Shown: one piece after another, positions 35,634 to 55,799 of the stretch | How positions within the stretch are numbered: position 1 is the first letter of the stretch | Layout: every line of letters starts with the position of its first letter | Assembly (NCBI GenBank): GCA_020740775.1 | Contig: JAHEWK010000005.1 | Location: 3,410,001-3,474,000 of the forward strand | Length of the DNA: 64,000 nt | Source: Ilyonectria destructans | Taxonomy: Eukaryota > Ascomycota > Sordariomycetes > Hypocreales > Nectriaceae | Direction: 5' to 3' | Position numbers and translations under genes: made by a program | Notes under the pieces: generated by a model | Seen by the model: the letters and a program-made list of their open reading frames with translations, nothing else | The model's database searches: none | Told to the model about the DNA's origin: nothing

Positions 35634-35648
35634 CGGGATTTAATTCCG
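35634..35648. promoter_or_regulatory. Cluster operator 1: CGG-N9-CCG palindrome
   Basis: Reads CGGGATTTAATTCCG. It lies about 270 bp upstream of the ATG of the Baeyer-Villiger-type monooxygenase pseudogene. One of seven matching sites, each upstream of a cluster gene. Confidence 0.75.
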
Positions 35649-35919
35649 TGGACTTTACCTCCGCCAAGCCCCTGGATCCATAGCCTAGCTCGCTCGTCAT
35701 GAAATTCCTCCAAATCCATGGGTCAAGGCTCAAAGGCAGTGTGCTCTCGAGCGTGTCACCGACTAGACTATGGTGTTCTTGTCGGTCTGAGGTGATACGC
35801 AACTCGAACAAGCATCATCTCACAAGTTGAAAACGAGCTCGCCTCGCGGTGTAGCTGCTACCACTTCCCGAGCTCTCTCAACAGCCTTTCCTTCCCCAGT
35901 CTCACACACGCAAGGCTAA

Positions 35920-36572
35920 ATGGAAACACCAAAAGTCATCATCATTGGCGGCGGGGTGGCCGCCATTGCCTTGGCCCACACTCTCAAGCACAAGCTCGGC
36001 TGCTCCAACTTTGAGGTACATGGAAGAGCGCATACACTAACCGATGCAGCGGACGATAACGCAGTCTAAACAGATATTCGAAAAGTGCGAAGGGCTGGGA
36101 GGAACGAGGAGAGTCAATGCGTATCCGGGATGGTAAGCTCGTGATGGCTCCAAAAGCCCCGCAAGCGCCGCTTACAATGGCTACAGTGGCTCCAATGTTC
36201 CCATCCACCTGTATTCTTTTAGCTTCAACTTGAATCCAGACTGGACGCAAGCCCTAGCTGACTAGAAGGAGATCCTTAAATATAAATGAGGTGCATTTGC
36301 TAAGTTGCTCTCTTTATTGACGTGCTGGCGTAGACATTAAGCCGACGGTCGATAAGTTTCAGCTGAGGTCGCATTTTATATTTGATACCGAATGTGTTGG
36401 TGCTACTTGAGAGAGTGACTATTGGAATATTAAATTCGTTAACTGTAAGATGGAAGAGAAATTCTCTTAGAGGTATACTATTCTACTCTTGGGTATAGGT
36501 GGATTCTTAATAGTAAGGGATACTCGGTTTCTTAAAATAGAAACTTTTAAGGACAGGATTTTTTATATAGCT
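35920..36572 (+). pseudogene. Baeyer-Villiger-type flavin monooxygenase, truncated and RIP-mutated
   Basis: Exon 1 (35920-36015) encodes VIIIGGGVAAIALAHTL, the N-terminal FAD-binding GxGxxG region. Exon 2 (36074-36132) continues IFEKCEGLGGTRRVNAYPG, the family's EKxxxxGGTW...YPG motif with Arg in place of the usual Trp. Exon 3 (from 36187) gives VPIHLYSFSFNLNPDW, then an in-frame TAG at 36263. Further on, recognisable pieces remain (LRSHFIFDTECVGAT, YWNIKFVNCK, GIGGFLIVRD) but with several stops and rising AT content. At about 36572 homology ends abruptly at a GC-rich patch. Intact relatives have about 500-600 residues, so at least half is missing. Working members insert oxygen next to a ketone to give an ester or lactone. 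The intact operator upstream suggests it once belonged to the cluster. Confidence 0.82.
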
Positions 36573-36722
36573 TAGCGGGGCCCCGAGACGTCGCTGGGGT
36601 GGCGTTTCTCACTTACTTCTCACTTTCCGATCAGGCGTCCAACGCCTCCCTTGCGCTCCCACTCACCCGGTCCTTAGGTCAGGGTTTTAGGCCTGCCCGG
36701 GGGCCTTTCTCTAGCCTTATAT
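36573..36722. other. GC-rich patch embedded in AT-rich sequence
   Basis: About 150 bases, starting GGGGCCCCGAGACGTCGCTG and ending TAGGCCTGCCCGGGGGCC, are GC-rich, while both sides are strongly AT-rich. They begin exactly where the monooxygenase homology ends. Possibly the end of an inserted element or a short segment that escaped mutation. No coding potential. Confidence 0.6.
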
Positions 36723-37422
36723 ATAATATAATTTAAATTATATTAAATATTATAAAATCTCTTTAAGTATTTATTAAACTTAGAAATATTAATTACTAAG
36801 AAACTATATCTTATAAAAGATATACTTCTTAGTTAGTTATATACTAAATATATAATCCCTAATTACTAGTAAAATACTCTAAATAACAAGTAATTCTAAC
36901 GGATTACTGGTAATTTATATAAGTTTTTAAGTACTCAGTGAACAGTCCCCTTATTCCATTCTAGAAAAGTCAGTCTATAATATAAATTGCAGGTTAGTAA
37001 ATACAGGCTGTAATATAAGTGTTAAATAACTGATTTTATAGATCTTTTCAGCTGCTTGTGTTGAATAGAAAGAGGGTTGCATACAGAGTTATAGGTCCTA
37101 ATCTTACATATAGATACATAAGATATCTCAGGGCCAGAGACACTTCCCAAGGTACAATAACAGAACAGAACAATCAACTGATTTAATATTAATAGATTGA
37201 ATACCCATACTGTCTGACAGCTTATACAGTTAGCTCGGGGTCTTTTTAGATAGCTTTAATAGCTAGAGCTATTATATTTTCCTTGTTAAGAGTTTCCCTA
37301 GTTTTTATAGAGGAATAGCAAATTGAAAGTAAAAATACGTTGTAGATATAGGCGGATAGCTAGCTTGCTTATCCAGCCAACTCGCCTATGGAGTACGTTA
37401 CTTATTGTTTATTGACTAATAC
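36723..37422. other. AT-rich intergenic sequence
   Basis: Degraded, no open frame. Probably a transposon remnant that separated the broken monooxygenase from its neighbours. It also holds the 3' end region of the Old Yellow Enzyme gene, whose stop is at 37423. Confidence 0.45.
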
Positions 37423-38529
37423 CTAAGCTTGAACACTCTGCTGGAACGAGTCGCTGAACGGATAATCTACATAGCCAGCAGCTGATTTGGGCGTGTAAAA
37501 GGTACTCCTATCATATGGATTCAGACCCAGTCCTTTTTTCAGCCGATAGGGAAGGTCGGGAGTGGAGATAAAATAGCGGCCGAACATGACAACAATGTCT
37601 CTGTCCAAGTACTCCTCGTCCACAAGTTTCTGAGCAGTATCGGGCTTGAAACCTCCAGCAACAAGCAAGGGTCCCTTCCAGATGTCGAAAGCAAAAGTGA
37701 GCTGTTCGGACGATGCGACATCTGCGTTGCCTGCGATCCGCGACTCGACGAGATGTAGATACGCCATGTTCAGCTTGGACAGCTTCGTCACGACGTCTGA
37801 AAACTGAGGGATGGGATCGTCCATGCGCATTGCCTGGAAAGTACTCCATGGGCTCAGACGGATACCGACCCGATCCGAGCCGATAGCGTCACAGACGGCT
37901 TGAGTCATCTCCACAGCAAATCGAGACCGGTTTTCAATGCTCCCACCATATTCATCAGTGCGCTGGTTTGACCGATCCTGAATGAACTGATCGATGAGAT
38001 AGCCATTGGCCCCATGAAGCTCAACCCCGTCGAACCCCGCTGCAATCGCGTTTTCGGCCGCTTTGGCGTAGTTCTTGGCCTTCTGTTTGATCTCCGCCAC
38101 GGTAAGGCGATGAGGACGAGGAGCCGTCTCGCTCAGAGGGATGTCGTCAGCGCCATGAATGGTGATTCCTTCGCGCTCTGCTACCTCTGGATTCGCAGTG
38201 CGGCCAATGGACCACAGCTGGCAGAAGATGTAAGAGCCATTGGCGTGCACAGCATCTGTAACCTTGCGCCATGCACGGATCTGGTCGTCGTTGTAGATAC
38301 CGGGCACGTTGTTGGTGCCTCCATCGTCGGGAGAGATGAAAGTCCCCTCGCTGACCAAGAGAGTTCCAGGCACAGAAGCACGCTGAGCGTAGTAATCGGC
38401 AACGATGTCAAGAGGGACATGGTCGTCTGATGCGCGGAAGCGCGTCAGGGGGCAAAGACCAATCCGTTGGTTCAACTTGATGCGCCCATTTCCTATGACA
38501 AGAGGCTCAAATAGCCGGGAGCCAGTCAT
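37423..38529 (-). CDS. NADH:flavin oxidoreductase, Old Yellow Enzyme family
   Basis: A single intron-free frame of 368 residues from the ATG before TGSRLFEPL; the open frame extends 26 codons further 5', but homologues begin here. Family landmarks are GLCPLTRFRA near residue 25, LLVSEGTFIS, FCQLWSIGR, HGANGYLIDQF (the substrate-binding His/Asn pair) at about residues 165-175, DRSNQRTDEYGGS, RVGIRLSPW, LLVAGGF and MFGRYFISTPDLPYRLKKG (FMN-phosphate site and C-terminal helix). Members are cytosolic FMN enzymes that use NAD(P)H to reduce the double bond of alpha,beta-unsaturated ketones. It is divergent from the SDR gene, with a CGG-N9-CCG palindrome between them about 240 bp upstream, so it is a likely cluster member. 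It appears fully intact. Confidence 0.92.
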   Translation of the reverse strand: MTGSRLFEPLVIGNGRIKLNQRIGLCPLTRFRASDDHVPLDIVADYYAQRASVPGTLLVSEGTFISPDDGGTNNVPGIYNDDQIRAWRKVTDAVHANGSYIFCQLWSIGRTANPEVAEREGITIHGADDIPLSETAPRPHRLTVAEIKQKAKNYAKAAENAIAAGFDGVELHGANGYLIDQFIQDRSNQRTDEYGGSIENRSRFAVEMTQAVCDAIGSDRVGIRLSPWSTFQAMRMDDPIPQFSDVVTKLSKLNMAYLHLVESRIAGNADVASSEQLTFAFDIWKGPLLVAGGFKPDTAQKLVDEEYLDRDIVVMFGRYFISTPDLPYRLKKGLGLNPYDRSTFYTPKSAAGYVDYPFSDSFQQSVQA

Positions 38530-39052
38530 GTTGCGAACTGTGTTGTTCTGGGTGATTGAGAATGCCTGAAATGTTCTTGATAAGCCCCAATCGCAAGTTT
38601 GCATCAATATTTAAATAGTTTCGCGGCAATCAGCCACGTGAGTCGTTTTCCCTTGGATTTCAAAGCAACCATATGATTTGCAATCATCGTATCGTATCGT
38701 GCATCTTAATGAGGTGTATTTTCTCCATTTTTCTCAGTAGCTTCGCTGACCGCCCTGTTGAGTTCGCGGCGGGTTTCAATTCCGCGGGCCGAAGAGAACC
38801 GTGGAGCGGAAATCGGGTAAGCCACAGTGTTATCGGAACGATTAATCCGTATTGCGCATAGCAACAGTTAGCTCTCTCGAGCAGACTTCCCCTCCTTGGC
38901 GCCTCGCGGATCGTGTCAAGACACTGGATTCCAACTTCCGTCGTTTGTCCAGGGCCTTTTCTCAGGTTTTCGTCATGTTATATTGATAAACGCCTTGTAG
39001 AGCACATGGACCTTTCCTACCCTTCTCAGCTAGGTAGTGCATCGAAGCCAAC
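38530..39052. promoter_or_regulatory. Bidirectional promoter of the OYE and SDR genes
   Basis: A 523-bp spacer between two divergent starts. It holds one copy of the cluster operator at 38770-38784, roughly central, so a single site can serve both genes. No other feature was recognised. Confidence 0.6.
38770..38784. promoter_or_regulatory. Cluster operator 2: CGG-N9-CCG palindrome
   Basis: Reads CGGGTTTCAATTCCG. About 240 bp from the OYE ATG and 270 bp from the SDR ATG. Confidence 0.72.
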
Positions 39053-40111
39053 ATGGAGAACGGGGACTCTCAGAATCGGCGTCCAAACGTCTGGATGATT
39101 AGTGGATGCTCAAGGGGATTGGGCCGCAGCATCGTATCCGCAGCTCTCGCTCGAGGCGATAAGGTGATCACCACAGCTCGTGATGTATCTCAGCTCAGCT
39201 ATGCCCGAGACAATGAGAACGTCGAGCTACTTTCGCTGGATATCACTGCGCCTCAGGACGTTCTCAACCAAAAGATCCAAGAAGCCATCTTAATCTTTGG
39301 TAGGATTGATGTTCTGGTTAATAATGCAGGATACGTTGCATCTGGCGTTTGGGAAGAAACCAGGTCTGCATGTCTTCGTCAAATCAACGCCTTGAACAAT
39401 TAACACAAAGGCAAGCTCGGATGAAGTCAAGCAGGAGTTCGAGACAAATTTCTTTGGCGCCTTGAACTTGACAAGAGCTGTTCTCCCTCATATGCGTCAC
39501 AGACGGACTGGTGCAATCCTGCTCATGGGAAGTATCCCTGGGTGGCATGCTGTTGCAGCTGGCGGACCATACAGTCAACAAAATTCGCGCTGGAAGGTAT
39601 ATGTCCCCTTTACGAACGAACCAGAACATGTTTTGGGGAGCTTCAAGGCACTAATTCCCAGGATTTGTCTTATCTCAAACTAGGTGCGGCCGACGCTCTC
39701 GGCCAGGAGGTCAACCCCCTCGGCATTCGCGTTCACCTCTTTGTCCTTGGCCGGTTCCGTACAGATATTCTAGATCAGAAATACAAGCGGGGAAACTTGA
39801 ACTCTAAGGATGACTTTGCGGACTATGAACAAGTCAAAAAGCAGTTGGTGGAGACGCAAGCTGCCAGCCACAAGGCACAGCCAGGAGATCCGTTGCGAGC
39901 GGCGGAGAGAATTGTGGATGTGGCAAGGCTTGAGAACCTTAGGGAGGAACAGGCCCGCAATTTGCCTCTGAGGATTCCGCTGGGGGCAGAGGCAACGGCA
40001 ATCATGAGAGGGAAGTGTCAAGAAACGCTCAATGTCCTGGATAACTGGGCCGAGTTCAGCTCAAGTGCTGATTACCCAGAGGCTTCAGAAACCCCGGCGT
40101 GCTATAAATAG
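39053..40111 (+). pseudogene. Short-chain dehydrogenase/reductase with a frameshift at the catalytic motif
   Basis: Exon 1 (39053-39363) encodes VWMISGCSRGLGRSIV, the Rossmann TGxxxGxG motif, then LLSLDIT and DVLVNNAGYVASG (NNAG). An intron at 39364-39415 joins EET to SSDEVKQEFETNFFGALNL. Exon 2 continues through ILLMGSIPG to GGPYS. Here the frame must move by one base (near 39573-39580) to continue KFALEG, then an intron at 39597-39683, then AADALGQEVNPLGIRVHLF to the stop at 40109-40111. A missing base therefore falls within the catalytic Tyr-x-x-x-Lys motif. All other parts are clean, so this is either a very recent inactivation or a sequence error. If intact it would be a cytosolic NAD(P)-dependent alcohol or ketone oxidoreductase of about 300 residues. 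It shares a promoter region and operator with the OYE gene. Confidence 0.75.
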
Positions 40112-40295
40112 GCTGAGTGAATGCCTGTTTATTCATCCCATTTTGCTCTTACGGATTCTTTCTGCCTATTTTCTCCAGGCTCTACATGGTTAATAAGTAT
40201 GCGATGGCACGTAAATAGAGAAGAGCTTATATGGTACCGGAATGATAGCTAGTAATTGACCAAATGAAAGATTGGCTTGAATGTTTTCCATATGC

Positions 40296-41000
40296 TCACA
40301 GTTTTGCTCTTACAGAATCGTATGTTACGACCACGTTCCCATTCGCCTCTCCCACTTGCCTCAACTTCCTCCCGAGGATCTTGTCCGCGGGGCCCTTCGG
40401 GATGTTCGCAACCACCTCCGCCGCCTTGAGCCGCTTGTACCTGGCCTTTTGTTCCTTCACATAAATGGGCAGGTCCCTCGCCGTCTTGGTCCGATCGCTG
40501 GCGTGCGAGGGCTTGAGCACCACGTATGCCTTGGGTCGCTCCCCAGCACGTTCATCAGGAACGCCGCAGACCGCAACATCGCTAACGGCGGGATGACCCA
40601 ATAAGAGGTTCTCAAGCTCCGCTGGGGCAACGCCGATGCCCTTGACCTTGATCATCTCCTTTAACGTATCCGTGATATAGAGCATTCCCTCCTCATTGAA
40701 CTTGCCAATGTCTCCATTGTGCAAGTATCCCTCCTTGTCGAAAACATCCGACGTCGCTTTGCCGTTGTTCTAGTAGCCCATCGACTTGAGGACCACGGGC
40801 CCAAATTTCATCGGTCTGACCGACTCCACAATCTTTACCAGTCTCTTGATCAATGATTCTCGCTTCAGTTGAAGGGACGAGCATGCCAACGCTCTGAGCG
40901 TACTTATACGCATATCTCTCAGGCGGATGGAACGTTATAGCAGAGCAGGATTCTGTCATACCATAGCCCTGCCTAAAACCAGTTCCCGGAATTGGTGCTC
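40296..41000 (-). pseudogene. Acyl-CoA ligase (AMP-binding, 4-coumarate:CoA ligase-like), 5'-truncated
   Basis: Only the C-terminal half remains. Starting near 40990 it reads RQGYGMTESCSAITFHPP, the adenylate-forming motif. It continues through SVGMLVPSTEARIID and GQTDEIWARGPQV. It then needs a frame change and carries a TAG in place of the usual Trp of MGYWNN (near 40770). The second piece (40296-40724) has HNGDIGKFNEEGMLYITDTLKEMIKVKGIGVAP, the hinge region with the conserved Asp and Lys, and the C-terminal Lys in GPADKILGRKLR. Homology stops at about 41000, so the first 300 or so residues are lost, together with any promoter. Functional relatives activate carboxylic acids as CoA thioesters using ATP. 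Position suggests a former member of the cluster. Confidence 0.85.
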
Positions 41001-41508
41001 CAAGAGGTCTAGAACCTCTTGTTACAGAGGTTCCAGAAAATATGCCTACGACTTTGCACGAGACTTCGAAGAACTCTATCGTATTATGAAGAAGGTACTT
41101 TAGGCACGGCTTTATGGCACTCAGGCTTTATGGCACTCAGTCTCGGGCAGTTGACCAAACCCGCCATCAAGTTCACTTCTTTTCCAGCGTAGTTTCATAG
41201 TACAAGCCGTTATTCAATGCCGATCAGTCACCCGGGCTTCTGAACTCAAGTTCGACTGGGGTTGGACATGTTTGATGGAACGGTGGGGTAGAAAGTACAG
41301 GGGGTCTGGCTACAGAAGCTGCCCTCACCCGTTCCGGTCGACCGAATGCATCATCTTGAAAGATGGTCTAGAGCAGTCTCTCTTTGTCCAACCTCATGGG
41401 AGTAAATCCGGAGAATCTAGATCGTCCTGCGACCCGGGCAAAGATGCGGGGAAGAGCACAGTTCCAAGCCCAAGGCAGCTAAACCGAGCTGGAGACACAA
41501 GACACCGG
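41001..41508. other. Intergenic, no gene
   Basis: Spacer between the truncated ligase and the first transporter. It contains a small direct duplication, TTTATGGCACTCAG, near 41110-41140. No coding signal. Confidence 0.4.
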
Positions 41509-41523
41509 CGGAATCTAAATCCG
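41509..41523. promoter_or_regulatory. Cluster operator 3: CGG-N9-CCG palindrome
   Basis: Reads CGGAATCTAAATCCG. About 160 bp upstream of the transporter ATG at 41682. Confidence 0.72.
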
Positions 41524-41681
41524 CAAAGCGAACAAGCTTAGCGCGAACTCAAATGCTGCAGCCTTCAACAAAAATAGTTGTTTAAAAACGAAGGCTGGCA
41601 CGCTCTGTAGACTCCCCACGCCAACCGTACACCCATCAAGTCCCACATCATCCACTTGAACTACCTTCTTCACTTGAAACG

Positions 41682-43445
41682 ATGACTGAGAAAGACGACT
41701 CGATGCACGAGCCCAGCGGCTGTCACGTGGAAGCGCCGGCAGCCAAGGTTGAGGAAGCAGTGACCAGCGTATGATTAATCACTTCTCGCTATCATCCTGT
41801 GTTACAGAAGTGTGAGCCTAACGAGAAGTTTCAGGATTCCGAAGAAGACCATGGTGCAAGACGGCAGATCATGCGAAAAATCGACTTCAGGCTCCTGCCG
41901 CCCCTTACGATTCTTTACATTATTGCCTTTATGGATCGATCGAATATCGGCAATGCGAAGGTTGCAGGAATGAATGACGAGCTCGGCCTAACAAGCTCGC
42001 AATATAACATTGCTTTGACTGTCTTCTTTTTTCCCTACGCCATATTCGAAGTTCCAAGCAACATTATTTTGAAGCTTATGCGGCCATCCCACTGGATAAC
42101 CATCCTGGTTATCGTTTGGGGTATTGTACGTTATGCCGTCTTGGTTCCTGTGACTTGACTGATATAGTATGTATAGGTCTTGACATGCCAAGGTCTCGTT
42201 AAAAACTATAAGCAGCTTGTAGCTACTCGAGCTCTTTTGGGGTTTGCTGAAGCCGGGTTCTTTCCCGCGGCTACGTATCTCTTAACGACCTGGTACTGCA
42301 GATGGGAGCTTCAGACACGGCTTGCTATCTTCTTTTCTGCGGCGTCATTAGCAGGGGCCTTCTCTGGCCTCTTAGCCTTTGGAATCTCTCATATGGATGG
42401 CATTGCAGGTCTAAGTGGGTGGCGGTGGATCTTTATCCTCGAAGGGATATTTACGGTTGCCCTTGGCCTTCTGATTCCTTGGCTTCTGCCAGATTCTCCC
42501 GTTCTAGCAGCTTTCTTAACCCAGGATGAGAAGGATTTCGTAATAACACGACTCGAGGCGGACTTTGGTACGAGCAGAGGTCGAGTCGATACTGAGGGTG
42601 GCTCCTTCAAGTGGAAGTATCTCAAGGATGCTTTACTTGACCGGCATATTTACCTTGGTGTTATTATGTTTCTGGGCCAGAGGTTCGTGAATCCATTTTA
42701 AACACCCTTTCCCTCTTTCTTAGCCCCAAAGGCTTACGAATACTCTATACTAGCATCGCGGTCTACGGTTTTAGCTTCTCGGCACCAACGATTATCTTCG
42801 AACTCGGCTATACCGCCCAACAAGCGCAACTCCTCACAATTCCTATTTACTTTGCTGGGGCTTGCTCTACTATTGTGTTTGCCCGGCTGGCGGATAAACG
42901 AAAGAAACGTTGGCCTTTTATCCTGATCCCTTTCTCGATTGCTGCCGTCGGTTTCATTGCTCTTCTTTCGATTCCCCATCCTAGACTTCCAGGTCTTACA
43001 TATGCAGTCCTCTTTCTCATTACCTCCGGTCTCTACCCAGCAGTTATTGGCTGTATAACCTGGGTGGGCAATAACCTTGCGCCTACCTTCAAGCGTGCTA
43101 TTGGTATGGCCCTACTTATGACTCTCGGGAACCTCGGAGGCGCTATTGGTTCCAACATCTTCCTTGCCGAACAGTCTCCACGCTATCGGCTCGGGTACGG
43201 ATTCTCTCTCGGTGTTGTCATGCTTGCTATTCTGTCGATATTCGTCTTGCGATATTCGAACCGGGCTCTGAATCGCAAACGAGATCTCATGATTGAAGAG
43301 GATGTTCTATCCCGTTACACTCAAGGTTTGTTCAATCTCATTCGCGAACCTCTGGACTATTAGCAAAATGAGAAACACTGACTCTGTTATAGAAGAAATA
43401 ATTGACATGGGTGATAAGTCGCCATTGTACCGATATGTCTGGTGA
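41682..43445 (+). CDS. Major facilitator transporter, DAL5/TNA1-like anion:cation symporter family (copy 1)
   Basis: Five exons, 41682-41768, 41808-42125, 42177-42682, 42754-43325 and 43393-43445, encode 511 residues. Motifs include KIDFRLLPPL before helix 1, FMDRSNIGNAKVAGM, the NIALTVFFFPYAIFEVPSN run, RALLGFAEAGFFPAATYLL, TTWYCRWELQTRLAIF, and FARLADKRKKRW before the second half. About twelve membrane segments are expected. The family imports organic anions such as allantoate, nicotinate or related acids across the plasma membrane. Exon lengths and all four intron positions match copy 2 at 53541-55275, with the last two exons identical in length (572 and 53). The first intron is only 39 bases, unusually short, so that boundary is the least certain. 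An operator lies 160 bp upstream. Confidence 0.88.
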
Positions 43446-43700: not shown

Positions 43701-44105
43701 TTATAGTATGCGAGGTGCCTCCTTTAAAGTCCTCGTATAAAAGCCACCCTTAGTACCGATAGTCTTAGACGTATCCCCAATTTCATAGCCAATCATATAG
43801 GTTATATGAAATGCCATAAACTTCTTGCCGTCATCACCTAGCGCTGTCTTGTATTCTTCGCTGTTAGAAACGGTCAGCCAATCATCGCAGCTTCTGACCC
43901 AAAGCTGAGCACATGCGTCGTACTCTAATACCCTTTCTCTAAAACTTCGGGCTTTTTTGTTCATTCCGGGAGTTTGGTGGTGCTATAATATTACTAATAC
44001 GCTGCTATTCTTTCACAGCTACTCCGAGAAGTCGGCATACCTCGAAATAACGAACAATGTGGTCCTGGAAGGCCTGAGTGGCCACAACCAGGAGTTAATC
44101 TAGAA
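43701..44105 (-). pseudogene. EthD-domain protein (copy 1), N-terminally truncated
   Basis: The second exon (about 43701-43955) reads HHQTPGMNKKARSFRERVLE then YDACAQLWVRSCDDWLTVSN, closely matching the intact EthD gene at 55915-56363. The preceding intron and the end of exon 1 (ATQAFQDHIVRYFE, near 44035-44080) are also preserved. Upstream of that the first 35 or so codons are missing, replaced by sequence that includes a decayed operator at 44108-44122. The C-terminus diverges after MIGYEIGD. EthD proteins are small dimeric alpha-beta barrel proteins of about 100-130 residues found with fungal oxidative pathways. It lies convergent to transporter copy 1, just as copy 2 lies beside transporter copy 2. 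Confidence 0.75.
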
Positions 44106-44107
44106 AA

Positions 44108-44255: not shown

Positions 44256-45095
44256 ATGACTCCAACGAACTACTTAGCCTTTGAACGGACCACGGGGGGT
44301 CTTCCGAGGTCGATTAGAAGCTCCACGGAGACCCTTCCTAAGAACCTTCAGCCACATGAGGTCCTTTTGAAAATCCAGGCCGTATCTGTTAATTTCCGTG
44401 ATGTAGGGATGATTACCGGCCGCTATTCTACCGAGGTCGAAGAACGTGGTATTCCATCCTCAGACTTTGCCGCTGAGGTGATCTCTATAGGGTCTGCAGT
44501 GATGGAATTCGCCACTGGCGACCACGTCTCACCGATCTTTGATCAAAACAGCATCACCTCGCATAAGAAGTCACCTGCCCTTTGCCTTGGAGGAGATGTG
44601 GCCGGCGTTCTGCGAGAATATGCCATCTTTAAGGCCCGGTTCTTGGTCAACATACCTGAATATCTTATCTGGGAGAAGGTAAGTTAAGGTCCGTTTCATC
44701 CAACCAGCTGTCTACTTACACCCGCTGCGGTAGGGAGTTATATTAGCTTGCGCGGGAGTCACGGCATGGACTGCTTTGGATGCTCTGGTGTCTGTGCCTG
44801 AAGGAGGTAGTGTACTATGCAAGGTCAGTGCCCCGAAGATTATCGTGAACTTCGCTATACCGGTGATTCGATAATACTTTGCTAATGCACAAGATTCAAA
44901 GCACGGGAGGTGTTAGCATATTTGCCCTTCTGATCTGTCTCGCCTCTGGCATTCATCCCATTATCACTTTCTCATCCGATAAGAAGGTCAACGCAATCAG
45001 AAATTTAGATTCTAGGATTCAGGGCATAAACTATATGAAATGCCTAAATATCACCGAGGAGGTATAACGAATTACAAATGGCAGAGGTGTTGAAT
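44256..45095 (+). pseudogene. Zinc-type (MDR) alcohol dehydrogenase, 3'-truncated and fused to a regulator fragment
   Basis: Exon 1 (44256-44678) carries the N-terminal GroES-like part with LLKIQAVSVNFRDVGMITGR, FAAEVISIGSAVMEFATGDH and CLGGDVAGVLREYA. Introns at 44679-44733 and about 44823-44892 are well formed. Exons 2 and 3 give LACAGVTAWTALDAL, then STGGVSIFALLICLASGIHP (the cofactor-binding GxGGVS region), NAIRNLDSRIQGINY and, after an in-frame TAA at 45065, TNGRGVEY. The homology then switches within one codon to sequence from the Zn2Cys6 regulator (LSGLLTQ). Working family members oxidise or reduce alcohols and quinones with NAD(P)H; no structural zinc cysteines are visible. The missing C-terminal third makes it non-functional. 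Confidence 0.82.
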
Positions 45096-46546
45096 ATAAG
45101 CTCAGTGGCCTACTCACTCAGGATGACATAAACATCAGACGGATCACGTTCTGGGGTATGTTTATTCACGAAAAGTATGTCCCACACAGAGTCGTGAAAT
45201 CAAAAAAAGCAGATACTAACAGAACCAGTATGTGGAGCTTGTATGTTGGTCGACTGTGGAATATAGGCATCCTAAATATCACCGTAGCTCGGTCGGTTGA
45301 AAGCCAGCTGCCTAATCTAGCTTAAAGAATATAGATGCTATACCCAGGTGCTGCTGGGCAATCTATCATCCCAGATAGTGGGATATTATTCTTACTTAAA
45401 GTGTGTACAGCAGCTAATATTGGCCTCTGTGAGTTTATGAAACGGATTAACGTAATACTATAAGGACCCCTTTTTGGTACTCTATCTTCAAGCTAACTTT
45501 TGTTAAAAAAGGTATTCTGGCTGTATGATGGGCCTTAATGTACTTGTCGCTTTCCTCTTCCAGGCAGAGATAGACTTAATAGTATAGCAGGCAAGCCTGC
45601 CGCCCTTATTACAGATTCATCCCTTGGATATAGAGAGGATATATCCACTAGCAGTTCTTCAGCTTCAGTATAGTACCTATTAAAGGTCTCTTAATTGTGT
45701 AATTAATAAACGATAAGATGCAGTATAATTCGACTTTAATCTCACTCTACAGACTCTACCTTTTAAAGTGCTTAACGTAAGATAGGCAATATCTTATTCT
45801 TTCTGTAAATCAGGCTACCCCCAGCAATATTACCAAAGTTATATATCTGGGCTTTATATAATATTGCTAAAATATTACAGTATTATTAAAGGTAATACTC
45901 TCGTTAGAAGATAAATATCTAAACTTTTTATACTATCTTTACTGCTTCTCTTATTTTTATCTATAATATCTATACCAGGCTGTATAATAAGTTACAGACT
46001 TCTCTTAATAATCCTTAGCTTTATTATTATTAAGGATTAGAAGAAATTAGCTATTGCTATAGCAATACAACTCAGGTTTTAGAAGTTATTATACTTATTA
46101 AAGGCAAATAGCAAAAGTTAGCTATAACTGCACGCTATCAGTTAAGTATAAGCCTCAAACAGTCCTCCGTACAGATATCGACCAACACAATCCAGCACGA
46201 TCTCGATGACCACGCGGACCATAATCGCCCTAGGCGGCGTACCCGGCTCTTAATATCTACTGCCGACTCTCATGCGCCTCCTATGTTATTTATGCCTCCG
46301 TCTTATCATTCCTACAATAACCTGTTCAACAATCAGACAGGAAATCATACTTCAATCTCCAACACAGAGGCGTTTCAGTATCTGTGGCTTTTTCCACAGG
46401 AGGGTGATTTCGGAATGGAAGAAATACCTAATCTCATGGACCGGTTTGATACCCAGCAACTGCCCGAGGAGCCCGCACAGCTGGAACAAACCATGAGCGA
46501 GGGCCGCCCTGCTGTGCAGGATCACGTTCAGGAGGATGGAGGCTGA
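45095..46546 (+). pseudogene. Partial, damaged copy of the Zn2Cys6 regulator (C-terminal half)
   Basis: The sequence follows the regulator at 31872-34768 from the middle of its exon 5 to its end, on the opposite strand. It reads LSGLLTQDDINIRRITFWG, then an intron at the same place (GTATGT ... CAG), then MWSLYVGRLW and NITVARSVESQL. Later pieces are SGCMMGLNVLVAFLFQAE, LQIHPLDIERIYPLAVLQLQ and, in the tail, LFMPPSYHSYNNLFNN. The preserved intron shows a genomic rather than RNA-mediated duplication. The centre (45690-46080) is strongly AT-biased with many stops, as expected from RIP, while the last 300 bases keep an open frame (46283-46546). No DNA-binding domain remains. Confidence 0.88.
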
Positions 46547-47055: not shown

Positions 47056-49030
47056 CTAGATTCTACCACGATCCAAAAACTTATTTGGAACTTCAACAAT
47101 TTTGCAACGAAGATACTCTGCCACATTCTTTCCTAGAACGTCATAGGTCGAGCTTGAAGCAACTCCACGATCAAGATGGTCTTTGAGCAGAAAGTGCACA
47201 GCTAGGATGGAATTAGCTACAATCGCAGTTGCAAGACACAGATCAACATACCTGAGATATAGGGAAGTTCAAAGCGGAAGATGGGCTTTCCAGTGTCATC
47301 CTCGTCAAGCAGCTCCCTAATCTTTGAGACAGTAAGAAGACTACGTAACCAATCCCACTCGTCAGAGTTGCGAACAAAGAAGCCAACATTGGCATCGGAT
47401 CCTTTGTCCCCAGAGCGAGCATGGACAACATATCCCAGAGGGGCTTTTGTTGTAGGCCCAAAGCTCGAGAGGTTCACTGCATTGGCAGTCTCGTATGTCT
47501 CCTGCTCATATCGAAAATCTTCAGTATCTGTTGGGCCTGGGATGGGAATCTCCAATCCTTTAGAGGGGACATAACAGATATGTTCTATAGCGCTCTGCGG
47601 AAGAATTGATACCCAGTACTCTAAATAAGGCTTTGGTGATGCCTGGCGAGTATCAACTGCAAAGGTGGCGCCAGGGTAGCTCTGCATGATTATATCAGTA
47701 ACTGGTCGGAGAAAGCGGCTGACGGACAGGTCGTCTTCGATCCTAGCTTGAGCGAAAATCCGGGCATCGACAGTGGCGGCGTCCTGGTTTCTTGGGTTGA
47801 TTGGACATCGGCCGTTGATACGAAACTTGAGACAGTGATACTTAGATTCGTCCAGGCCGGCCCTAACTTGACGCTCAAGCATCTGTGCCTTTTCCTCGAT
47901 GTCGAGACCGCAGAGGAAGTAATGGGCCTCGGCTTGATATCCGCCCCTTGCTGTAATGCCAACCTTGGTAGTTGGTGGTGGTGGGAGACCGGTAATGCCG
48001 GTCACCTGACTATGGTTAAGTTAGCTAAATCGAAACGCAGGTTATTTAAGATATACTTGCACTCGATCTTCGCCCGCCTGTTTAATTTTGATCTTATCAA
48101 GCCTTGCCACTGCATCCGAATTGTAATATAGCGGACCTTGGATTTCATATAGAAGCTGAGCTTTGCAAGTATCAACTGTGACCATTCCATCATGGCCTTT
48201 CTGTTTGGTGATGTAGAAGTCTCCATTCGCTGCCAGTTCCGCGACGGGAAATGCGATATCAAGAGATCTTCCCGGGAGACTTTTGAAACCAGAGAAATTG
48301 CCTCCAGTCACATAGGTTGAACACTCAATGAAATGACCGGCCACAAAGGCGTGGGCCAGTTCATGGTAGTCTGTGCGTTTCCATTCGTGATAGTAGGCTG
48401 CACATCCCATCACGGTTGACGCGTCGGCGACGCGACCGCACAGGACAATATCAGCACCTTGCTTGAAAGCCTCAACGATGCCCCAACAGCCCAAGTAGCA
48501 TTGCGCGTAAATAGGCTCCAGTCCCCATTCTTTGAAGTTTTTGCCTGTATGATGTTATTATGCTGAACGTTATCTTGGTCTTTACAACTCGTACCATTCG
48601 TAAGGCTCTTGAAGTCTTCATCGGTCTTGATGCGCTTCTGAACCTCGCCGAGCACTTCGTCTCCACCAACCCAGGCCACTTGCAAATCGAGGCCGGCGGC
48701 TTTGATCTTATCGGTAACAATGTGGTACAGCTTTTCCGTGTCGCTGGCGCCAGCGTTTACGGCAACCTTGATACCTCTGGATTGGAGGTGAGGCAAGGCA
48801 GGCTCAAGGGCTTCTAGGAATGAGATTTCAAATTCCGATGATGAGCCATTGCTTTGTACCTTTGCTTCTCCTCTTGTGGTCATGTTGTACTCTGACATCC
48901 AGTCTCCGACGATGAATTGAACATTGTCCTCATCTCGGGCCAAATTGAGGAATGCATGGCGTCTGTCAGTTACCGAGCCAGAAGCGGACGCAATCCGAAC
49001 TAATGGGTTCTTGTTGCCGTTAACAGTCAT
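47056..49030 (-). CDS. AtuA-like (DUF1446) protein
   Basis: Four exons on the minus strand, 48595-49030, 48057-48544, 47252-48005 and 47056-47201, encode 607 residues with consistent phases. Introns are 50-51 bases with standard sites. Typical DUF1446 features are VRIASASGSVTDRR at the start, FIVGDWMSEYNM, IKVAVNAGASDTEKLY, GLEPIYAQCYLGCWGIVEAF, GADIVLCGRVADAS, HDGMVTVDTC, VTGITGLPPPPTTKVGI and, at the end, YVVHARSGDKGSDANVGFF. The last exon adds FLLKDHLDRGV and a final FLDRGRI. The bacterial namesake AtuA acts in acyclic terpene (citronellol/geraniol) use; the reaction of fungal members is not established. Length is typical and no damage is visible. A perfect operator palindrome sits 240 bp upstream, placing it firmly in the cluster regulon. 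Confidence 0.9.
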
Positions 49031-49269: not shown

Positions 49270-49284
49270 CGGAATTAAATTCCG
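49270..49284. promoter_or_regulatory. Cluster operator 4: CGG-N9-CCG, perfect palindrome
   Basis: Reads CGGAATTAAATTCCG, a complete palindrome around a central A. About 240 bp upstream of the AtuA-like start codon. Confidence 0.78.
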
Positions 49285-50209: not shown

Positions 50210-50224
50210 CGGGATATAAATCCG
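50210..50224. promoter_or_regulatory. Cluster operator 5: CGG-N9-CCG palindrome
   Basis: Reads CGGGATATAAATCCG. About 250 bp upstream of the carboxylesterase ATG. Confidence 0.74.
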
Positions 50225-50474
50225 TCTGCGATTTCGGCCCTATCGTGTGAATTGCAGCGTATCATGACGTTGTTTGGCACACCGTTGTTGATTGAACAAA
50301 CGATCGACTCATCTAAGCGACGAAATATAATCAAGTGCCAAGACTGCTTAATATCTACATATGCCATCAAGTATAAATTCTTCATATTCTCCTCGTCATT
50401 GAGCCATTGGTAAGGAGCAAGCATAGTAGATACAGAAACCGGATCCTACCACTCACCGGACAATTCTTTACAGC

Positions 50475-52458
50475 ATGCTTCTTAAGCTCCTGTCGTTGCT
50501 GGCTCCAGCTATAGTGTTTGCGAGCCATGATCCCGTCAAAAATCCGGTTGTGAACCTGGGCTCCGCTGGCACCTATAGGGGTGTTCTCCAGAACAATGGA
50601 ACGTAAGAGCTGTTTTTTTCTGAAAACTCGTCACAGATTGCTAATCAAAGAACGTCCGTACAGTGTGGAATCGTGGAAAGGTATTCCTTATGCCCAACCC
50701 CCACTTGGGTCCCTCCGGTTCATGCCCCCGGAGCCGCTTTCCCACCAAAGCGCTGCAGTGGTGAATACAACGACCAATCCTGATCGATGCCTTCAGTTTT
50801 CCCTCGCCCCATATGGTGTGCATAATGCCTACCTTGGGCCGGGGGCCCCGGGAACCGAGGACTGCCTCAAGCTATACGTTTGGAAACCAGCCAAGGCAAG
50901 AAAGGGCAACAAGCTACCCGTCGTTGTCTTTGTTCATGTACGACATCCTTTCTCAGAATTCTTTGCTTATGGCCCAAGCTCACATACGGCTCACAGGGCG
51001 GCGGACTCATTTTCGGATCAGGTTCTCAAGATGACTTTGGTGACTGGGTATCCCAGGACCAAAAGTTCATTGCGGTCAGTATGAATTACCGCCTAGGAAT
51101 TCTTGGCTTCTTGAACCATCCAGACTTACCGTCTGCAAATGCGGGCCTCCTTGACCAACGCATGGCTATGCAATGGGTCAAGCAAAACATTATCAACTTC
51201 GGAGGCAACCCCAATGATATTACCATCATGGGCCAGTCAGGAGGAGGCTGGGCCATCTTGGCGCATTTGGCTTTATTCGATGGTCATCACAACAACACTT
51301 TCCAAAAAGCTATCGTCAGGTCAGCCCAACGTGAGCCAATGTTCAACACCAAAGAACTTAAGATTCGTAACAAAGCTTTGTTCCACCACGTCAACTGTAC
51401 GACCGGTCAGGACCAACTGACGTGTTTTCGTAACCTTACCGAGTCACAGCTTGTCACTGCTTTTTGGAGCTTCTCCACCATTCTCGGGACAGAAGGGTAA
51501 TCATGTTACTGTCGCTGGCTGTAAAGCACTGGCTAATACTATTCTTTTTTCTTTTAGTATCTTCAAGAACCAGGTGTTCGGATATCAAGGCAGTTTTGGC
51601 CCCACAATCGACGGGGTGACATTGACCGATTCCGTCACGAAGCTCTTCAGAAAGGGAAAGCTTGCCAATGTACCTACAATCGCTGGATCTACGAACGATG
51701 AGGGATTCGATGGCTACATTGACGCCCATCAACAAAACCCTACCCCGAAGAACACAACTAAACTTGACCCTAGCACTAATAGAATTACCAATCTTACGGA
51801 TTATCAAGTTAACGAGGTGGCTAAACTCTATCCCGTCAATGCCACATATGCCTCAGTAGCACCGGACAACTTCTTCCAGAATGTTTTCCGCTCCTATTGG
51901 ATGGCATTAGGTCTTTTCGGTGAGGTCGGCATCTTCGGTAGTGAGCGATTGGTAGGGCGGTGGATGAGTGCCAGACACGGACCCCAACGGATTTGGACAT
52001 ACAGATTCAACGCACCCAGTGAGTCTGCCGAAGACAGAAGACTGTTTATAGTAATATTAACTGTATTTGCAGCTGTAGGGAGTGTGAATCCGAAATCGCC
52101 CTACCCACTTGGGCCTGTACAACATTCCGCAGAGAACTCCTATCTGGATGTGCCGCTAAGCAGCATGACGAGCTATGAGCGAGCGATTGCAGAGGAATTC
52201 CGAGCCTATCTATCGTCGTTCATCCGAACTGGTAGCCCAAATACACATAAGCTGCATTATGCCCCGTTTTGGCCGAATTATGGTGCCTTGGGAGATTTCC
52301 TCAATTCCCCGGTCCGTCTTGTCCCGCAATTTGCCTTTAGCAGCAACCCCAATAAGACTTATCCAACAAGCACTCAAATTGAGGTCGCACAGAAGGCAGG
52401 GTTAGAGAGAACGGATTATTGGCAAACCGATAAGATTCTTGAGAGTATCAGGTTTTGA
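50475..52458 (+). CDS. Secreted type-B carboxylesterase/lipase
   Basis: Five exons, 50475-50602, 50664-50937, 50997-51496, 51558-52018 and 52073-52458, encode 582 residues. A signal peptide (MLLKLLSLLAPAIVFA) precedes the mature protein. Family motifs are GIPYAQPPLGSLRF, EDCLKLYVW, VVVFVHGGGLIFG (oxyanion hole), FIAVSMNYRLGILGF and NIINFGGNPNDITIMGQSGGG with the nucleophile Ser (GxSxG). The acid residue lies in STNDEGFDG and the catalytic His in PVQHSAENSYL. All three triad positions are present. The enzyme should be extracellular and hydrolyse carboxylic esters or lactones. Introns are 54-61 bases with clear branch points. The operator 250 bp upstream makes it a likely cluster member, in line with a role after Baeyer-Villiger oxidation, though secretion could instead point to an ester substrate outside the cell. 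Confidence 0.9.
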
Positions 52459-53540
52459 GATAGTATTTTCTATACCCAACTCCGTGGCATTGCCGAAACT
52501 GAGCGCTGTAACAAGCCGAGGGCCATGTTTGACCAGGGTGAAACTAGGATTAGATAGCCCTCAACAGTCAATCAAGTATTCGACATGGCAAACTCTTATT
52601 TTAAATCCTTCGTTGGGAAAGCTTTGTGAAGTCCATATATCTAGCTTTGTCTAATCATGCTGTTTGTCATGCAATTATAAAGCTTAGTGAGGATATTTAA
52701 CAACTGTCTAAGCTCAAAGAAATCTTACCTACTGACTTAGATGGGATCTAGCGGGGTATCAATCCGCCATAGGCTCTGGACAGTTATTCAGCCTCCATTG
52801 ATCTCTCTAATTGTCATCAATGTGGGCCATTGATCTTCGTCATACAAGCGTGGGCCAGGACACTTGAAATGTTCTTGATATCTCAATAAGTGAAGATGAC
52901 GCTAACAATGTCCCTTGAGTACATGGTAAAGAAGTCAGGAACAGTTAAGGCGTTGCAATTTCTCTGACGGCTGGGTTGAAGAACATCGCCATAATACCAC
53001 CAGCCATGGTAGGCAACACCTCAGCGAGACTTACGACGGCTTTTGCATAGCCTTTCTCCTTGGAGACTACCCTTTTGAATGGCGACGAAACCGCTCGTGG
53101 GTTAACAAGCCCACCGTGGTGGTTAGTCACCAAGGCCGTCGATGCAAACAACACTACGGCCTTGAGCCTTGCGAATCCTGCGGGGGATAGAGCATCTTCA
53201 GTGCTCAATTATCACTGGAAGACCTGGTTTCACGTTGTCAAACTTAACTTAATGACCTTGAAGAGGAGAACATGCATTTCCATTAGCATTCTTATCATCA
53301 CTCCGACCGGGACTACTCAAAGGTTCCGCATTTAGCTCATAGATTGCATGATGGTCGGTCGCAAAGTCTCTGGAAGCTAAACTATTGAAAATATTGACCT
53401 TGTGAAGAAAGAATTGTAACTACCATAACAATACGTCCACCTCAATGCTTGCATAATCGGTGACCGACCCAACCCCTTACGTATTCCTGTAGATACAAGC
53501 TTGGAGCGATTTAACTCCCACTATAGCCTGGTCGGACGGT
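52459..53540. other. Intergenic region between convergent genes
   Basis: About 1.1 kb between the esterase stop and the stop of transporter copy 2. An 87-codon minus-strand frame at 52945-53208 and an overlapping plus-strand frame have no recognisable family or intron context. It should hold both 3' untranslated regions. No gene is supported. Confidence 0.45.
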
Positions 53541-55275
53541 TTAAGAAACGTATTTAAACAGTGGCGATCTGTCGCCCATGGCTTTCAACTGAGCTATAAG
53601 TGGCGAGTTAGTATGGCACATTATGGACTGGCATGCATCAGATTTCGACTTACCATCAGAATATTTCGCCCTAACTTCTTCTTCCGACATCATGCTACGT
53701 CTCTTGTTGATGCGCTGTGTCGCAAAGTGCAGGATGATAGTGCTAATGACCGCCGCAGACATGATCCCGAGTGAAAAGCCGTAACCCAACCAGTAGTGCG
53801 GAGCTTGCTTCTGTAGGAAGATATTCGAGCCAACAGCTCCACCGAGATTTCCAATCGAAATCAGCAGAGCCATGCCTATAGCACGCTTGAAAGACGGGGC
53901 TAGGTTATTTCCGATCCATGAAATGCATCCAATAATGGATGGATACAAGCCTGCTGTAATAAAGAACAGAAAGAAATACGTCAACCCCGGGAACTTGGGA
54001 TGTGGGATTGATAACATGGCCGTAAACCCAACCATAGCTATGCAGAACGGAATAATGATAAAGACCCACCGCTTGCGTTGACGGTCAGCTAAGCGAGCGA
54101 AGATAATGGTAGAACACGCTCCGACAAAATATATGGGGATAGTCAATAACTGGGCTTGTGCCGCTGTATAGCCCAGCTCCTTGATGATTGTAGGGGCCGC
54201 AAAGTTGAACCCGTATGTGCTGATACTGCACAAGCAGTCAGCTATCTTTATATCAATAAAATTTGTGAGAGATGAACTTACCTATTACCCCAGTAGATGA
54301 TGACACCCAAGTAGATCTTCCAGTCTTTCAGAGCATCCGTTAGGTATCGCCACTCAAACTTATTCGTGTCCTCGCCGTCGTTATCGTGGTCCATTGAGAC
54401 ACGAACGTCTAGTCTAAGCCGCTCAGATACGAAGGCTTTCTCTTGCTCGGACAAGAAGGAGGCGGTTTCCGGAGAGTCAGGAAGAACCCACGGAATTATA
54501 ACTCCAACGCAAACAGTCAGGATGCCCTCTAAGATGAAGATCCAACGCCATCCGCCTAGACCAGCAACACCCTCCATGTGTTGAATGCCAAAAGCTAGCA
54601 GGCCCGAAAAACTGCCAGCAAGAGATGCTGCGGAGTAGAATATAGCCATCCGAGTCTGAAGCTCCCAACGGCAGTACCATGTTGTCAAAAGGTATGTTGC
54701 GGCAGGGAAAAAGCCAGCCTCTGTGAAGCCGAGGAGAATCCGGGTGATGAGAAGCTGATGATAATTCTTGACAATACCCTGTAAGGTAATGACCTAGAAC
54801 TGTTAAACCAATTTAATCGAGGAATTATGAAACGTACTGTGCCCCACGATATCACAAGAAGACTCAGCCACCGCGAAGGTCTGACAAGCTTGAGAACAAT
54901 GTTGCTCGGGACTTCAAAGACCGCATACGGAAAGAAGAAAACGGTCAATGCCATGTTGTATTGAGCTCCAGTGAGACCCAGATCGTCGTTCATTCCTGCC
55001 ACTTTGGCGTTCCCGATATTGGAACGGTCGATGAAGGACAAGATATACAGGAGCGTGAGGGGGGGCAGAAGATGCCAATCGATTTTGCGGACGATCTTTT
55101 TCGTCTCAGCTTCATCAAAGCCGGCTTCCTGAGTGAAAAGTTAGTTCCGTTAACGTGTTCCCCGCGACTAAATCTGACGTACGTTGCGAGCTTCAAGGTT
55201 GAGTTCTTCCAGTTTACTAACCTGGGGTTCGCCAGAGAGGCGGACCCCGTCTTTCGTAGATGCTCTGTCAGTCAT
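53541..55275 (-). CDS. Major facilitator transporter, DAL5/TNA1-like (copy 2)
   Basis: Five exons on the minus strand, 55183-55275, 54838-55128, 54282-54793, 53654-54225 and 53541-53593, encode 506 residues. The introns (44-60 bases, mostly GTACGT or GTAAGT donors) sit at the same positions as in copy 1. Matching motifs are KIDWHLLPPL, FIDRSNIGNAKVAGM, NMALTVFFFPYAVFEVPSN, RILLGFTEAGFFPAATYLL, TTWYCRWELQTRMAIF and FARLADRQRKRW. It ends in the same SPLFKYVS tail as copy 1 (SPLYRYVW). By eye the two proteins are clearly paralogous over their whole length. It is a plasma-membrane importer, probably of an organic acid. An operator 255 bp upstream shares the spacer with that of the divergent EthD gene. 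Confidence 0.9.
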
Positions 55276-55529
55276 AGCGCGTACAGTTGAACTTTCGCTT
55301 GGAGAAGACTGTGAAGAAGGAGCTGGGTTGACTACCGGTAAAGGCGAAAAGGTATTCTTAACAAATAATCACAAACCTTCTTCTCTCCTTATCAGTCTCG
55401 GGACTAACGGAGTCTAAAACCCCACACTGGACGCCTCCAGCCTGGGGAGATCTTACAGAATGCGGGGTAACGAGGTTGGAGGGGACTAATACGACACTAG
55501 ATATTTAGTTTTACAAACCACTAATTCCA

Positions 55530-55544
55530 CGGGATTTAAACCCG
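55530..55544. promoter_or_regulatory. Cluster operator 6: CGG-N9-CCG palindrome
   Basis: Reads CGGGATTTAAACCCG. About 255 bp upstream of the start of transporter copy 2, in the 640-bp spacer shared with the EthD gene. Confidence 0.74.
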
Positions 55545-55784
55545 AGGCCGTCACAACAGTTCACTTTCCGTCCTTCTGCTCCGCTTTTATCTCGAATGGA
55601 GGGCAAGAAGTACGCTCAAGACCCTACCGAGCGCTAAAAATGTCTTGCAATAATATCAAGGAATTCACCACCCAGTTTACGAACCAATTTATGCTTTGAA
55701 TAATACCACTCCTAGTAAAGTCACCATTACTACATAGGCATTCTCGTTGAGTACGGTAGTCTTGAAATAGTAGCATAAATGCAT

Positions 55785-55799
55785 CGGGATTAGATTCCG
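55785..55799. promoter_or_regulatory. Cluster operator 7: CGG-N9-CCG palindrome
   Basis: Reads CGGGATTAGATTCCG. About 115 bp upstream of the EthD start codon. Confidence 0.74.

What the first reader, a model, noticed from the sequence alone, without database searches (positions are those of the whole stretch)
35634..55799. A shared 15-bp palindromic operator marks a catabolic regulon
Seven sites fit CGG-N9-CCG with a conserved core, consensus CGGRATTWAATYCCG: 35634, 38770, 41509, 49270, 50210, 55530 and 55785. Each lies about 115-270 bp before the start of a cluster gene: monooxygenase, OYE plus SDR, transporter 1, AtuA-like, esterase, transporter 2 and EthD. The one at 49270 is a perfect palindrome. 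The N9 core is conserved beyond the CGG half-sites, so this is more than chance occurrence of CGG and CCG. I did not see it in the flanking gene regions. CGG inverted repeats are the known target type of Zn2Cys6 dimers, and spacing defines the regulator; an N9 spacing with this core is not one I recognise as assigned.
Basis: partly seen in the sequence, partly recalled or inferred. Interest (0 to 1): 0.9.

Follow-up and report, generated by a model that had tools for sequence, protein, structure and literature searches.

The report
Shared DNA switch of catabolic genes
Seven copies of one short palindromic DNA sequence sit in front of the genes of a probable fungal catabolic cluster, and the same sequence recurs at a sister cluster elsewhere in the genome, so it is very probably the docking site of the cluster's own regulator; this is a familiar kind of control, with a spacing that we did not find described.

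Summary
All seven CGG-N9-CCG sites are at the stated coordinates, 115-271 bp before an ATG. They occupy 5 of 5 divergent promoters of the cluster. No other CGG inverted-repeat spacing (0-30) exceeds 3 copies there, and 0 of 5000 shuffles reach seven at N9.

Of 17,439 CGG-N9-CCG in the 71.7-Mb genome, 78 carry the core CGGRWTN3AWYCCG, 7 of them in these 20 kb.

Further support: scored with a matrix from the seven, the other 71 core sites are led by C7:1244081, C67:2391771 and C7:1259980. C7 is a paralogous cluster (regulator, AtuA, OYE, SDR, monooxygenase, ligase); C67 lies beside an AtuA-CoA-transferase gene. On C7 five genes have a hit of 12 bits or more 208-350 bp before the ATG, three of them imperfect sites.

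Most likely this is the operator of the cluster's Zn2Cys6 protein (31872-34768), probably shared with its C7 paralogue. Binding is untested; promoters of other species could not be read. The "monooxygenase" target is a truncated remnant. The kind is ordinary zinc-cluster regulation; the spacing was not found in a limited literature search.

The parts
31872..34768 (-). Zn2Cys6 transcription factor, about 850 aa in my model, the probable binder; ATG 34768, GC-AG first intron 34658-34708, exon 2 34578-34657
   Evidence: Zn_clus and Fungal_trans domains; exon boundaries; best relative Fusarium nematophilum 73%
35634..35648 (.). operator CGGGATTTAATTCCG
   Evidence: 271 bp before monooxygenase-remnant ATG 35920, 865 bp before TF ATG
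35920..36572 (+). truncated FMO-type monooxygenase remnant (matches residues 1-163 of the C7 paralogue)
37423..38529 (-). OYE-family FMN oxidoreductase (Oxidored_FMN)
   Evidence: 67% to C7 paralogue
38770..38784 (.). operator CGGGTTTCAATTCCG between OYE and SDR
39053..40108 (+). short-chain dehydrogenase
40299..41004 (-). AMP-dependent acyl-CoA ligase, C-terminal remnant only (residues 326-559 of the C7 paralogue)
41509..41523 (.). operator CGGAATCTAAATCCG
   Evidence: 158 bp before MFS1 ATG
41682..43363 (+). MFS transporter 1
45089..46522 (+). degraded second copy of the transcription factor, closer to the F. lateritium relative than to the intact copy
47056..49030 (-). AtuA-family protein (AtuA plus AtuA_ferredoxin)
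49270..49284 (.). operator CGGAATTAAATTCCG, perfect palindrome, before AtuA
50210..50224 (.). operator CGGGATATAAATCCG, before esterase
50475..52458 (+). carboxylesterase
52752..52766 (.). weaker eighth CGG-N9-CCG (CGGGGTATCAATCCG) in a convergent 3' region; probably not an operator
   Evidence: matrix score 10.1 against 19.0-23.6 for the seven
53554..55275 (-). MFS transporter 2
55530..55544 (.). operator CGGGATTTAAACCCG, before MFS2
55785..55799 (.). operator CGGGATTAGATTCCG, 115 bp before EthD ATG
55915..56360 (+). EthD-domain protein, two exons (exons put together by eye)

Best explanation
The seven sites are operators of the cluster-encoded Zn2Cys6 regulator (31872-34768). Shown: each divergent promoter of the cluster carries one or two copies of CGG-R-W-T-N3-A-W-Y-CCG, two CGG half-sites facing each other across 9 bp with a conserved AT-rich core. 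Inferred: a homodimer joined by a coiled coil behind its zinc cluster puts one zinc module on each CGG, the 9-bp spacer and core exclude other zinc-cluster dimers, and an inducer (probably a substrate or intermediate) lets it switch on both genes of each divergent pair. A paralogous regulator with a similar zinc cluster (39 of the first 51 residues identical) lies in a sister cluster on C7 with the same kind of site, so the two clusters probably form one shared regulon; C7 keeps fuller copies of the monooxygenase and ligase that have decayed here.
For: Sites in 5 of 5 divergent promoters, spacing-specific, 0 of 5000 shuffles. 7 of 78 genomic strict-core sites in 20 kb. Leave-one-out ranks all seven above any other window position. 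Matrix from the window alone: of the 71 other strict-core sites, first and third are in the C7 paralogous cluster, second is beside an AtuA-family gene. C7: 5 hits at score 12 or more in 38 kb against a shuffle mean of 0.68, 0 of 1000 shuffles reach 5; 2 hits at 17.3 or more, mean 0.019, 0 of 1000 reach 2. Regulator has C-x2-C-x6-C-x5-C-x2-C-x6-C and both family domains; solved relatives by sequence are led by PUT3, LAC9 and PPR1 (E 1.4e-5 to 6e-5). Locus tags in several other fungi place relatives of this regulator and of AtuA 1 to 12 apart.
Against: No binding or expression data. Promoters of other species could not be read. Three of the five C7 hits (13.0-14.6 bits against 19.0-23.6 for the seven) have a broken half-site or lack the core A at position 10. 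My raw gene model for C7 runs an exon over the site at 1244081 and joins monooxygenase and SDR into one gene; I split these by eye. AtuA, ligase and aldehyde dehydrogenase of C7, and the truncated ADH of the window (44193 on), have no good site. The regulator's own ATG is 865 bp from the nearest site. At 2 mismatches the consensus is near its control genome-wide, 218 against 194. The regulator's first intron needs a GC donor. In F. lateritium the tags of regulator and AtuA (010678, 010023) are far apart and on different contigs.
Confidence: 0.75

Rival explanations
1. The sites are true operators, but the main binder is another zinc-cluster protein: the C7 paralogue (1248.2-1251.1 kb) or an unlinked one; the local regulator does something else or has decayed in function.
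For: The C7 paralogue has a similar zinc cluster and lies among promoters with the same core; a second local regulator copy is already degraded; another Zn_clus gene lies at 61823-63485.
Against: The local regulator has no stop in its modelled reading frame and its relatives are linked by tag number to AtuA in several other fungi; the sites cluster around it more densely than around C7 (7 hits of 12 bits in 26 kb against 5 in 38 kb).
Confidence: 0.17
2. Chance: CGG and CCG triplets are common and a reader picked a pattern after the fact.
For: 17,439 CGG-N9-CCG exist in the genome; the dyad alone does not survive correction over 37,193 dyads; the loose consensus is near its control count.
Against: Spacing scan, leave-one-out and the placing of the best other core sites at C7 and C67.
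Confidence: 0.03
3. The sites are leftovers of one promoter copied several times during cluster growth, without selection.
For: The cluster holds duplicates: two MFS genes, two EthD stretches, two regulator copies.
Against: Flanks (100 bp each side) of the seven sites are no more alike than shuffled ones: mean 9.76 against 9.73, 144 of 300 shuffled sets reach the observed mean; four pairs of window and C7 promoters showed no evident shared stretch beyond the coding starts.
Confidence: 0.03

Closest known systems
PUT3, PPR1 and GAL4/LAC9 of yeasts (zinc-cluster dimers on inverted CGG repeats)
   Same: Zn2Cys6 module (PUT3, LAC9 and PPR1 are the closest solved sequences, GAL4 only at E 0.03-0.09), inverted CGG half-sites, likely coiled-coil homodimer, control of metabolic pathways
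   Different: Their spacers are N10, N6 and N11 (recalled); here N9 with a conserved RWT-N3-AWY core
AtrR of Aspergillus fumigatus, CGG-N12-CCG
   Same: Inverted CGG repeats (string CGGN12CCG counted in the search listing for PMC10294635; the link to AtrR is from its title and from memory)
   Different: Spacer N12; targets in iron and sterol metabolism, not a catabolic cluster
Cluster-specific regulators such as GliZ or the quinate regulators (recalled)
   Same: Regulator encoded in the cluster it controls, one shared site per promoter
   Different: Other half-sites and spacings; the present regulator serves probably two unlinked clusters
Pseudomonas atu cluster (recalled; family name from PF07287)
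   Same: AtuA family, with short-chain dehydrogenases and an acyl-CoA ligase
   Different: Fungal cluster adds OYE, FMO, EthD and MFS genes and a zinc-cluster protein

Membership tests
Zn2Cys6 (zinc-cluster) regulator | Six-cysteine motif at the N-terminus | tested here: met
   CLSCRRRKIKCDGNETCSNCTTYKLPC after placing a GC-AG intron; Zn_clus E=1.9e-9
Zn2Cys6 (zinc-cluster) regulator | Fungal_trans middle domain | tested here: met
   PF04082 E=5.8e-20
Zn2Cys6 (zinc-cluster) regulator | Coiled-coil dimerisation helix after the zinc cluster | tested here: inconclusive
   A leucine-rich stretch SKLEARVLQLEDLLRQ follows the zinc cluster; no coiled-coil program was run
Inverted CGG-repeat operator | CGG-Nx-CCG with one fixed spacing in the target promoters | tested here: met
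   N9 in 5 of 5 divergent promoters, 0-3 at other spacings
Inverted CGG-repeat operator | Conserved upstream of homologous genes | tested here: inconclusive
   C7 paralogous cluster: OYE and MBL have full sites, FMO, SDR and SDR2 imperfect ones, AtuA and ligase none; other species not readable
Inverted CGG-repeat operator | Binding by the cluster regulator and loss on half-site mutation | not testable with these tools
   needs EMSA or DAP-seq
Known operator with N9 spacing | A described CGG-N9-CCG regulator | tested here: inconclusive
   0 papers hold any of four literal spellings; N6, N8, N11 or N12 spellings occur in papers of the listing (16 papers, 15 listed, some not about fungi), but the N10 spelling of PUT3's spacing occurs in none listed, so the test is insensitive; bracketed forms could not be searched

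The most novel reading that the evidence does not exclude
CGG-RWTN3AWY-CCG is an unassigned zinc-cluster operator class that coordinates a catabolic regulon of AtuA, OYE, SDR, FMO and transporter genes at three or more unlinked places in one genome; a decaying cluster is kept useful because its missing monooxygenase and ligase are supplied under the same operator from a sister cluster, and the regulator-AtuA pairing, hence the operator, is old across the filamentous ascomycetes.
Probability: 0.4. Interest if true: 0.58.

Novelty: new member of a known kind. Interest (0 to 1): 0.45.

Why it matters
It attaches a specific, testable DNA code to a family of regulators for which I found no described function, and whose genes appear linked to AtuA-type genes in several fungi. 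If true, the regulon (and thereby missing pathway steps and the substrate) can be read off those genomes by a simple scan, and the two clusters of this genome give a natural case of one operator tying together unlinked, partly decayed gene sets.

Tried and rejected
Chance and promoter duplication were tested and rejected. A first flank-similarity test was faulty because masked letters counted as matches; replace it. Matches at 2 or 3 mismatches were looked at and found uninformative. Neighbourhoods of 6 of the 9 sites with up to one mismatch outside the two clusters were read: C67:2391771 is in a divergent promoter beside an AtuA-family gene; two (C10, C12) fall inside predicted genes, one (C73:891479) has no gene called within 1.6 kb, one (C2:1244817) lies between genes, one (C2:2386221) is 155 bp before a predicted gene that I did not identify; the other 3 of 9 were not read. 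Of further high-scoring strict sites, C56:2685908 lies inside a gene, C3:2486663 inside a gene model and C1:2034352 has no gene called. C8:357026, C67:1066590 and most lower-scoring sites were not read. Literature: searches for Zn2Cys6, AtuA with Fusarium clusters, zinc-cluster spacing and acyclic terpene utilisation with Zn2Cys6 gave listings only and nothing on N9 in what was shown; PMC5559640 was seen in four passages. The prokaryote-genome and viral collections were not scanned, since the question concerns fungi; no structure was predicted because a monomer model would not test spacing.
Full report
WHAT WAS CLAIMED AND WHETHER IT IS THERE. All seven are at the stated positions. The window holds 12 CGG-N9-CCG in all (100 shuffles: mean 3.9, none with 12); the remaining five are without the core (32579, 32592, 50716, 58692) or with part of it (52752, in a convergent 3' region). 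My gene models put each of the seven 115-271 bp before an ATG. They lie in the five divergent promoters of the cluster: regulator/monooxygenase remnant, OYE/SDR, ligase remnant/transporter 1, AtuA/esterase (two sites) and transporter 2/EthD (two sites).

IS IT MORE THAN CHANCE. In those five promoters (4,311 bp), inverted CGG repeats occur 7 times at a 9-bp spacer and 0-3 times at each other spacer from 0 to 30; 0 of 5000 dinucleotide shuffles reach 7 at N9 and 1 of 5000 reaches 7 at any spacer; five other intergenic stretches of the cluster, including the one before the truncated ADH, hold a single N9 repeat, 52752. The promoters were delimited after the sites were known. Among 37,193 dyads of trinucleotides CGG-N9-CCG ranks first with p=1.2e-5, which by itself would not survive correction over all dyads. 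The core adds most of the information: in the seven sites positions 6 and 10 are invariant (T and A), 4 and 12 are purine and pyrimidine, 5 and 11 are A or T. Of 17,439 CGG-N9-CCG in the 71.7-Mb genome (reversed control 29,318) 78 have that core (reversed control 33), and 7 of the 78 are in these 20 kb, about 350 per Mb against about 1 per Mb elsewhere. Because the core pattern was read off the sites themselves, this figure is partly circular; leave-one-out matrices reduce that in the window (each site beats every other window position), and the next paragraph tests it elsewhere.

FURTHER SUPPORT FROM THE SAME GENOME. Scored with a matrix from the seven window sites, the 71 other strict-core sites are led by C7:1244081, C67:2391771 and C7:1259980. 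This ranks pattern matches; a matrix scan of the whole genome could not be run. C7:1227-1263 kb is a paralogous cluster that was not used for pattern or matrix: it holds AtuA (75% identical in its largest match), the regulator's closest paralogue, a fuller FMO-type monooxygenase and acyl-CoA ligase, SDR, OYE (67%) and a bZIP relative. It also has a second SDR, aldehyde and alcohol dehydrogenases and sugar transporters (named by eye from the sequences) and a metallo-beta-lactamase-fold hydrolase. Over 38 kb of it there are five matrix hits of 12 bits or more, against a shuffle mean of 0.68 and 0 of 1000 shuffles reaching five, and two of 17.3 or more against a mean of 0.019. They lie 233 bp before the lactamase-fold gene, 270 bp before the monooxygenase, 208 bp before SDR, 208 bp before SDR2 and 350 bp before OYE. 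Two of these gene starts rest on my own splitting of merged ab initio models: one raw model runs an exon over 1244081 and another joins monooxygenase and SDR. The monooxygenase site is at the same distance as in the window (270 and 271 bp), although the promoters showed no evident alignment. Three of the five are imperfect: CGGAATTACAATCCC, CGGAATTCTTTCCCG, CGGAATTATAATCCA. C7's AtuA and ligase have no good site. C67:2391771 lies between an MFS-like gene (by eye) and a gene with AtuA, DUF4387 and CoA-transferase III domains, 254 bp before its ATG, with a second CGG-N9-CCG 13 bp on. That locus has its own, different Zn2Cys6 gene, so its sites may answer to that protein.

THE REGULATOR. My ab initio prediction missed the zinc cluster, because the first intron (34658-34708) starts with GC; placing it gives a full six-cysteine motif and an 850-aa protein with Zn_clus and Fungal_trans domains. 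My model still contains small errors (one probable unspliced stretch). The nearest relatives in the protein collection are from Fusarium nematophilum (73%) and F. lateritium (60%), whose deposited models also begin after the zinc cluster; this suggests a Fusarium-like host, which is an inference. The C7 paralogue and the window protein differ in 12 of the first 51 residues, with the stretch around the first cysteines nearly identical (read). Solved relatives by sequence are PUT3, LAC9, PPR1 and LEU3, and more weakly HAP1/CYP1, RSC3/RSC30 and GAL4.

THE CLUSTER ELSEWHERE. No DNA of other fungi could be read. Locus tags give a weak substitute for gene order: regulator and AtuA relatives carry close tags in F. 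nematophilum (005562 and 005550), Pestalotiopsis fici (07355, 07351), Neonectria ditissima (g3537, g3529), F. decemcellulare (11702, 11699), Cadophora sp. M221 (002558, 002564), Coleophoma cylindrospora (05000, 04993) and Penicillium vulpinum (005649, 005650); regulator and OYE in Cylindrodendrum hubeiense (g489, g486); AtuA and OYE in Boeremia exigua (g2336, g2337) and Verticillium albo-atrum (004273, 004271). These are pairs that I noticed in the 120 listed hits of each search, not a systematic count; the regulator relatives of Cadophora, Coleophoma and Penicillium are distant (33-38%). Against: in F. lateritium the listed regulator and AtuA (010678, 010023) are not close, in Thelonectria olida and Coniochaeta sp. 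2T2.1 the two hits are given on contigs of different lengths, and the best OYE hits of F. nematophilum (012215) and P. fici (03236) are not near the other two genes.

STATE OF THE WINDOW CLUSTER. The monooxygenase matches only residues 1-163, the ligase only residues 326-559 of their C7 relatives, and a second regulator copy at 45089-46522 is broken (one search counts several stops in it). That copy resembles the F. lateritium protein more (54-67% by segment) than the intact window copy (41-68%). The cluster borders an AT-rich stretch at 10-32 kb (13-30% G+C). So the site before the monooxygenase (35634) stands before a broken gene, though it may still serve the divergent regulator gene 865 bp away.

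HOW IT MOST LIKELY WORKS. Shown: the sites, their spacing and core, their place in divergent promoters, their recurrence at the sister cluster. From knowledge of the family (recalled, and passages of PMC5559640): such proteins typically bind pairs of CGG triplets as homodimers held by a coiled coil. Inferred: the local regulator, and probably its C7 paralogue, recognise CGG-N9-CCG and activate transporters and enzymes in response to a substrate. The gene set (monooxygenase, OYE, dehydrogenases, esterase or lactonase, CoA ligase, AtuA, transporters) would suit breakdown of a cyclic ketone, lactone or terpenoid; no tool result shows the substrate.

WHAT IS KNOWN. Four literal spellings of CGG-N9-CCG were found in 0 of the papers held, while N6, N8, N11 or N12 spellings occur in papers of a 16-paper result (15 listed, some not about fungi, listing only). 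The N10 spelling, the spacing I recall for PUT3, occurs in none of those listed, and bracketed spellings could not be searched, so this is weak evidence of absence. The mechanism is of a well-known kind; the spacing and core, and their tie to this regulator family, are what may be new.

Noticed in passing
window 45089-46522 (+): Degraded second copy of the regulator, more like the Fusarium lateritium relative than like the intact copy; suggests an old duplication with loss of one copy.
   Followed up: partly
window 35920-36572 and 40299-41004: Monooxygenase and acyl-CoA ligase are truncated remnants; fuller relatives are on contig C7.
   Followed up: yes
window 34658-34708: First intron of the regulator has a GC donor; my ab initio model missed the zinc cluster because of it, and two deposited Fusarium proteins begin at the same later place, perhaps for the same reason.
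   Followed up: partly
window 43767-43949 (-): Fragment of a second EthD gene (59% to the other over 64 residues) downstream of transporter 1, suggesting a duplicated transporter-EthD unit.
   Followed up: no
G000:C67:2389716-2395458 (L047, L051, L052): AtuA-DUF4387-CoA-transferase III fusion gene with a divergent MFS-like gene and two CGG-N9-CCG sites 13 bp apart in the shared promoter, next to a different Zn2Cys6 gene.
   Followed up: partly
window 10000-32000: AT-rich stretch (13-30% G+C) directly beside the cluster, like the repeat-mutated isochores of filamentous fungi (recalled).
   Followed up: no
window 56458-57454 (-): bZIP-like gene related to the bZIP of the C7 cluster (50% over 101 residues), so the shared gene set may extend past EthD.
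   Followed up: no
G000, e.g. C9:1333314, C19:102599, C25:150108: Two 15-mers, CGGGTTCTTATTCCG (9) and CGGATTCTGATTCCG (6), make up 15 of the 78 strict-core sites and are perhaps parts of repeated elements.
   Followed up: no
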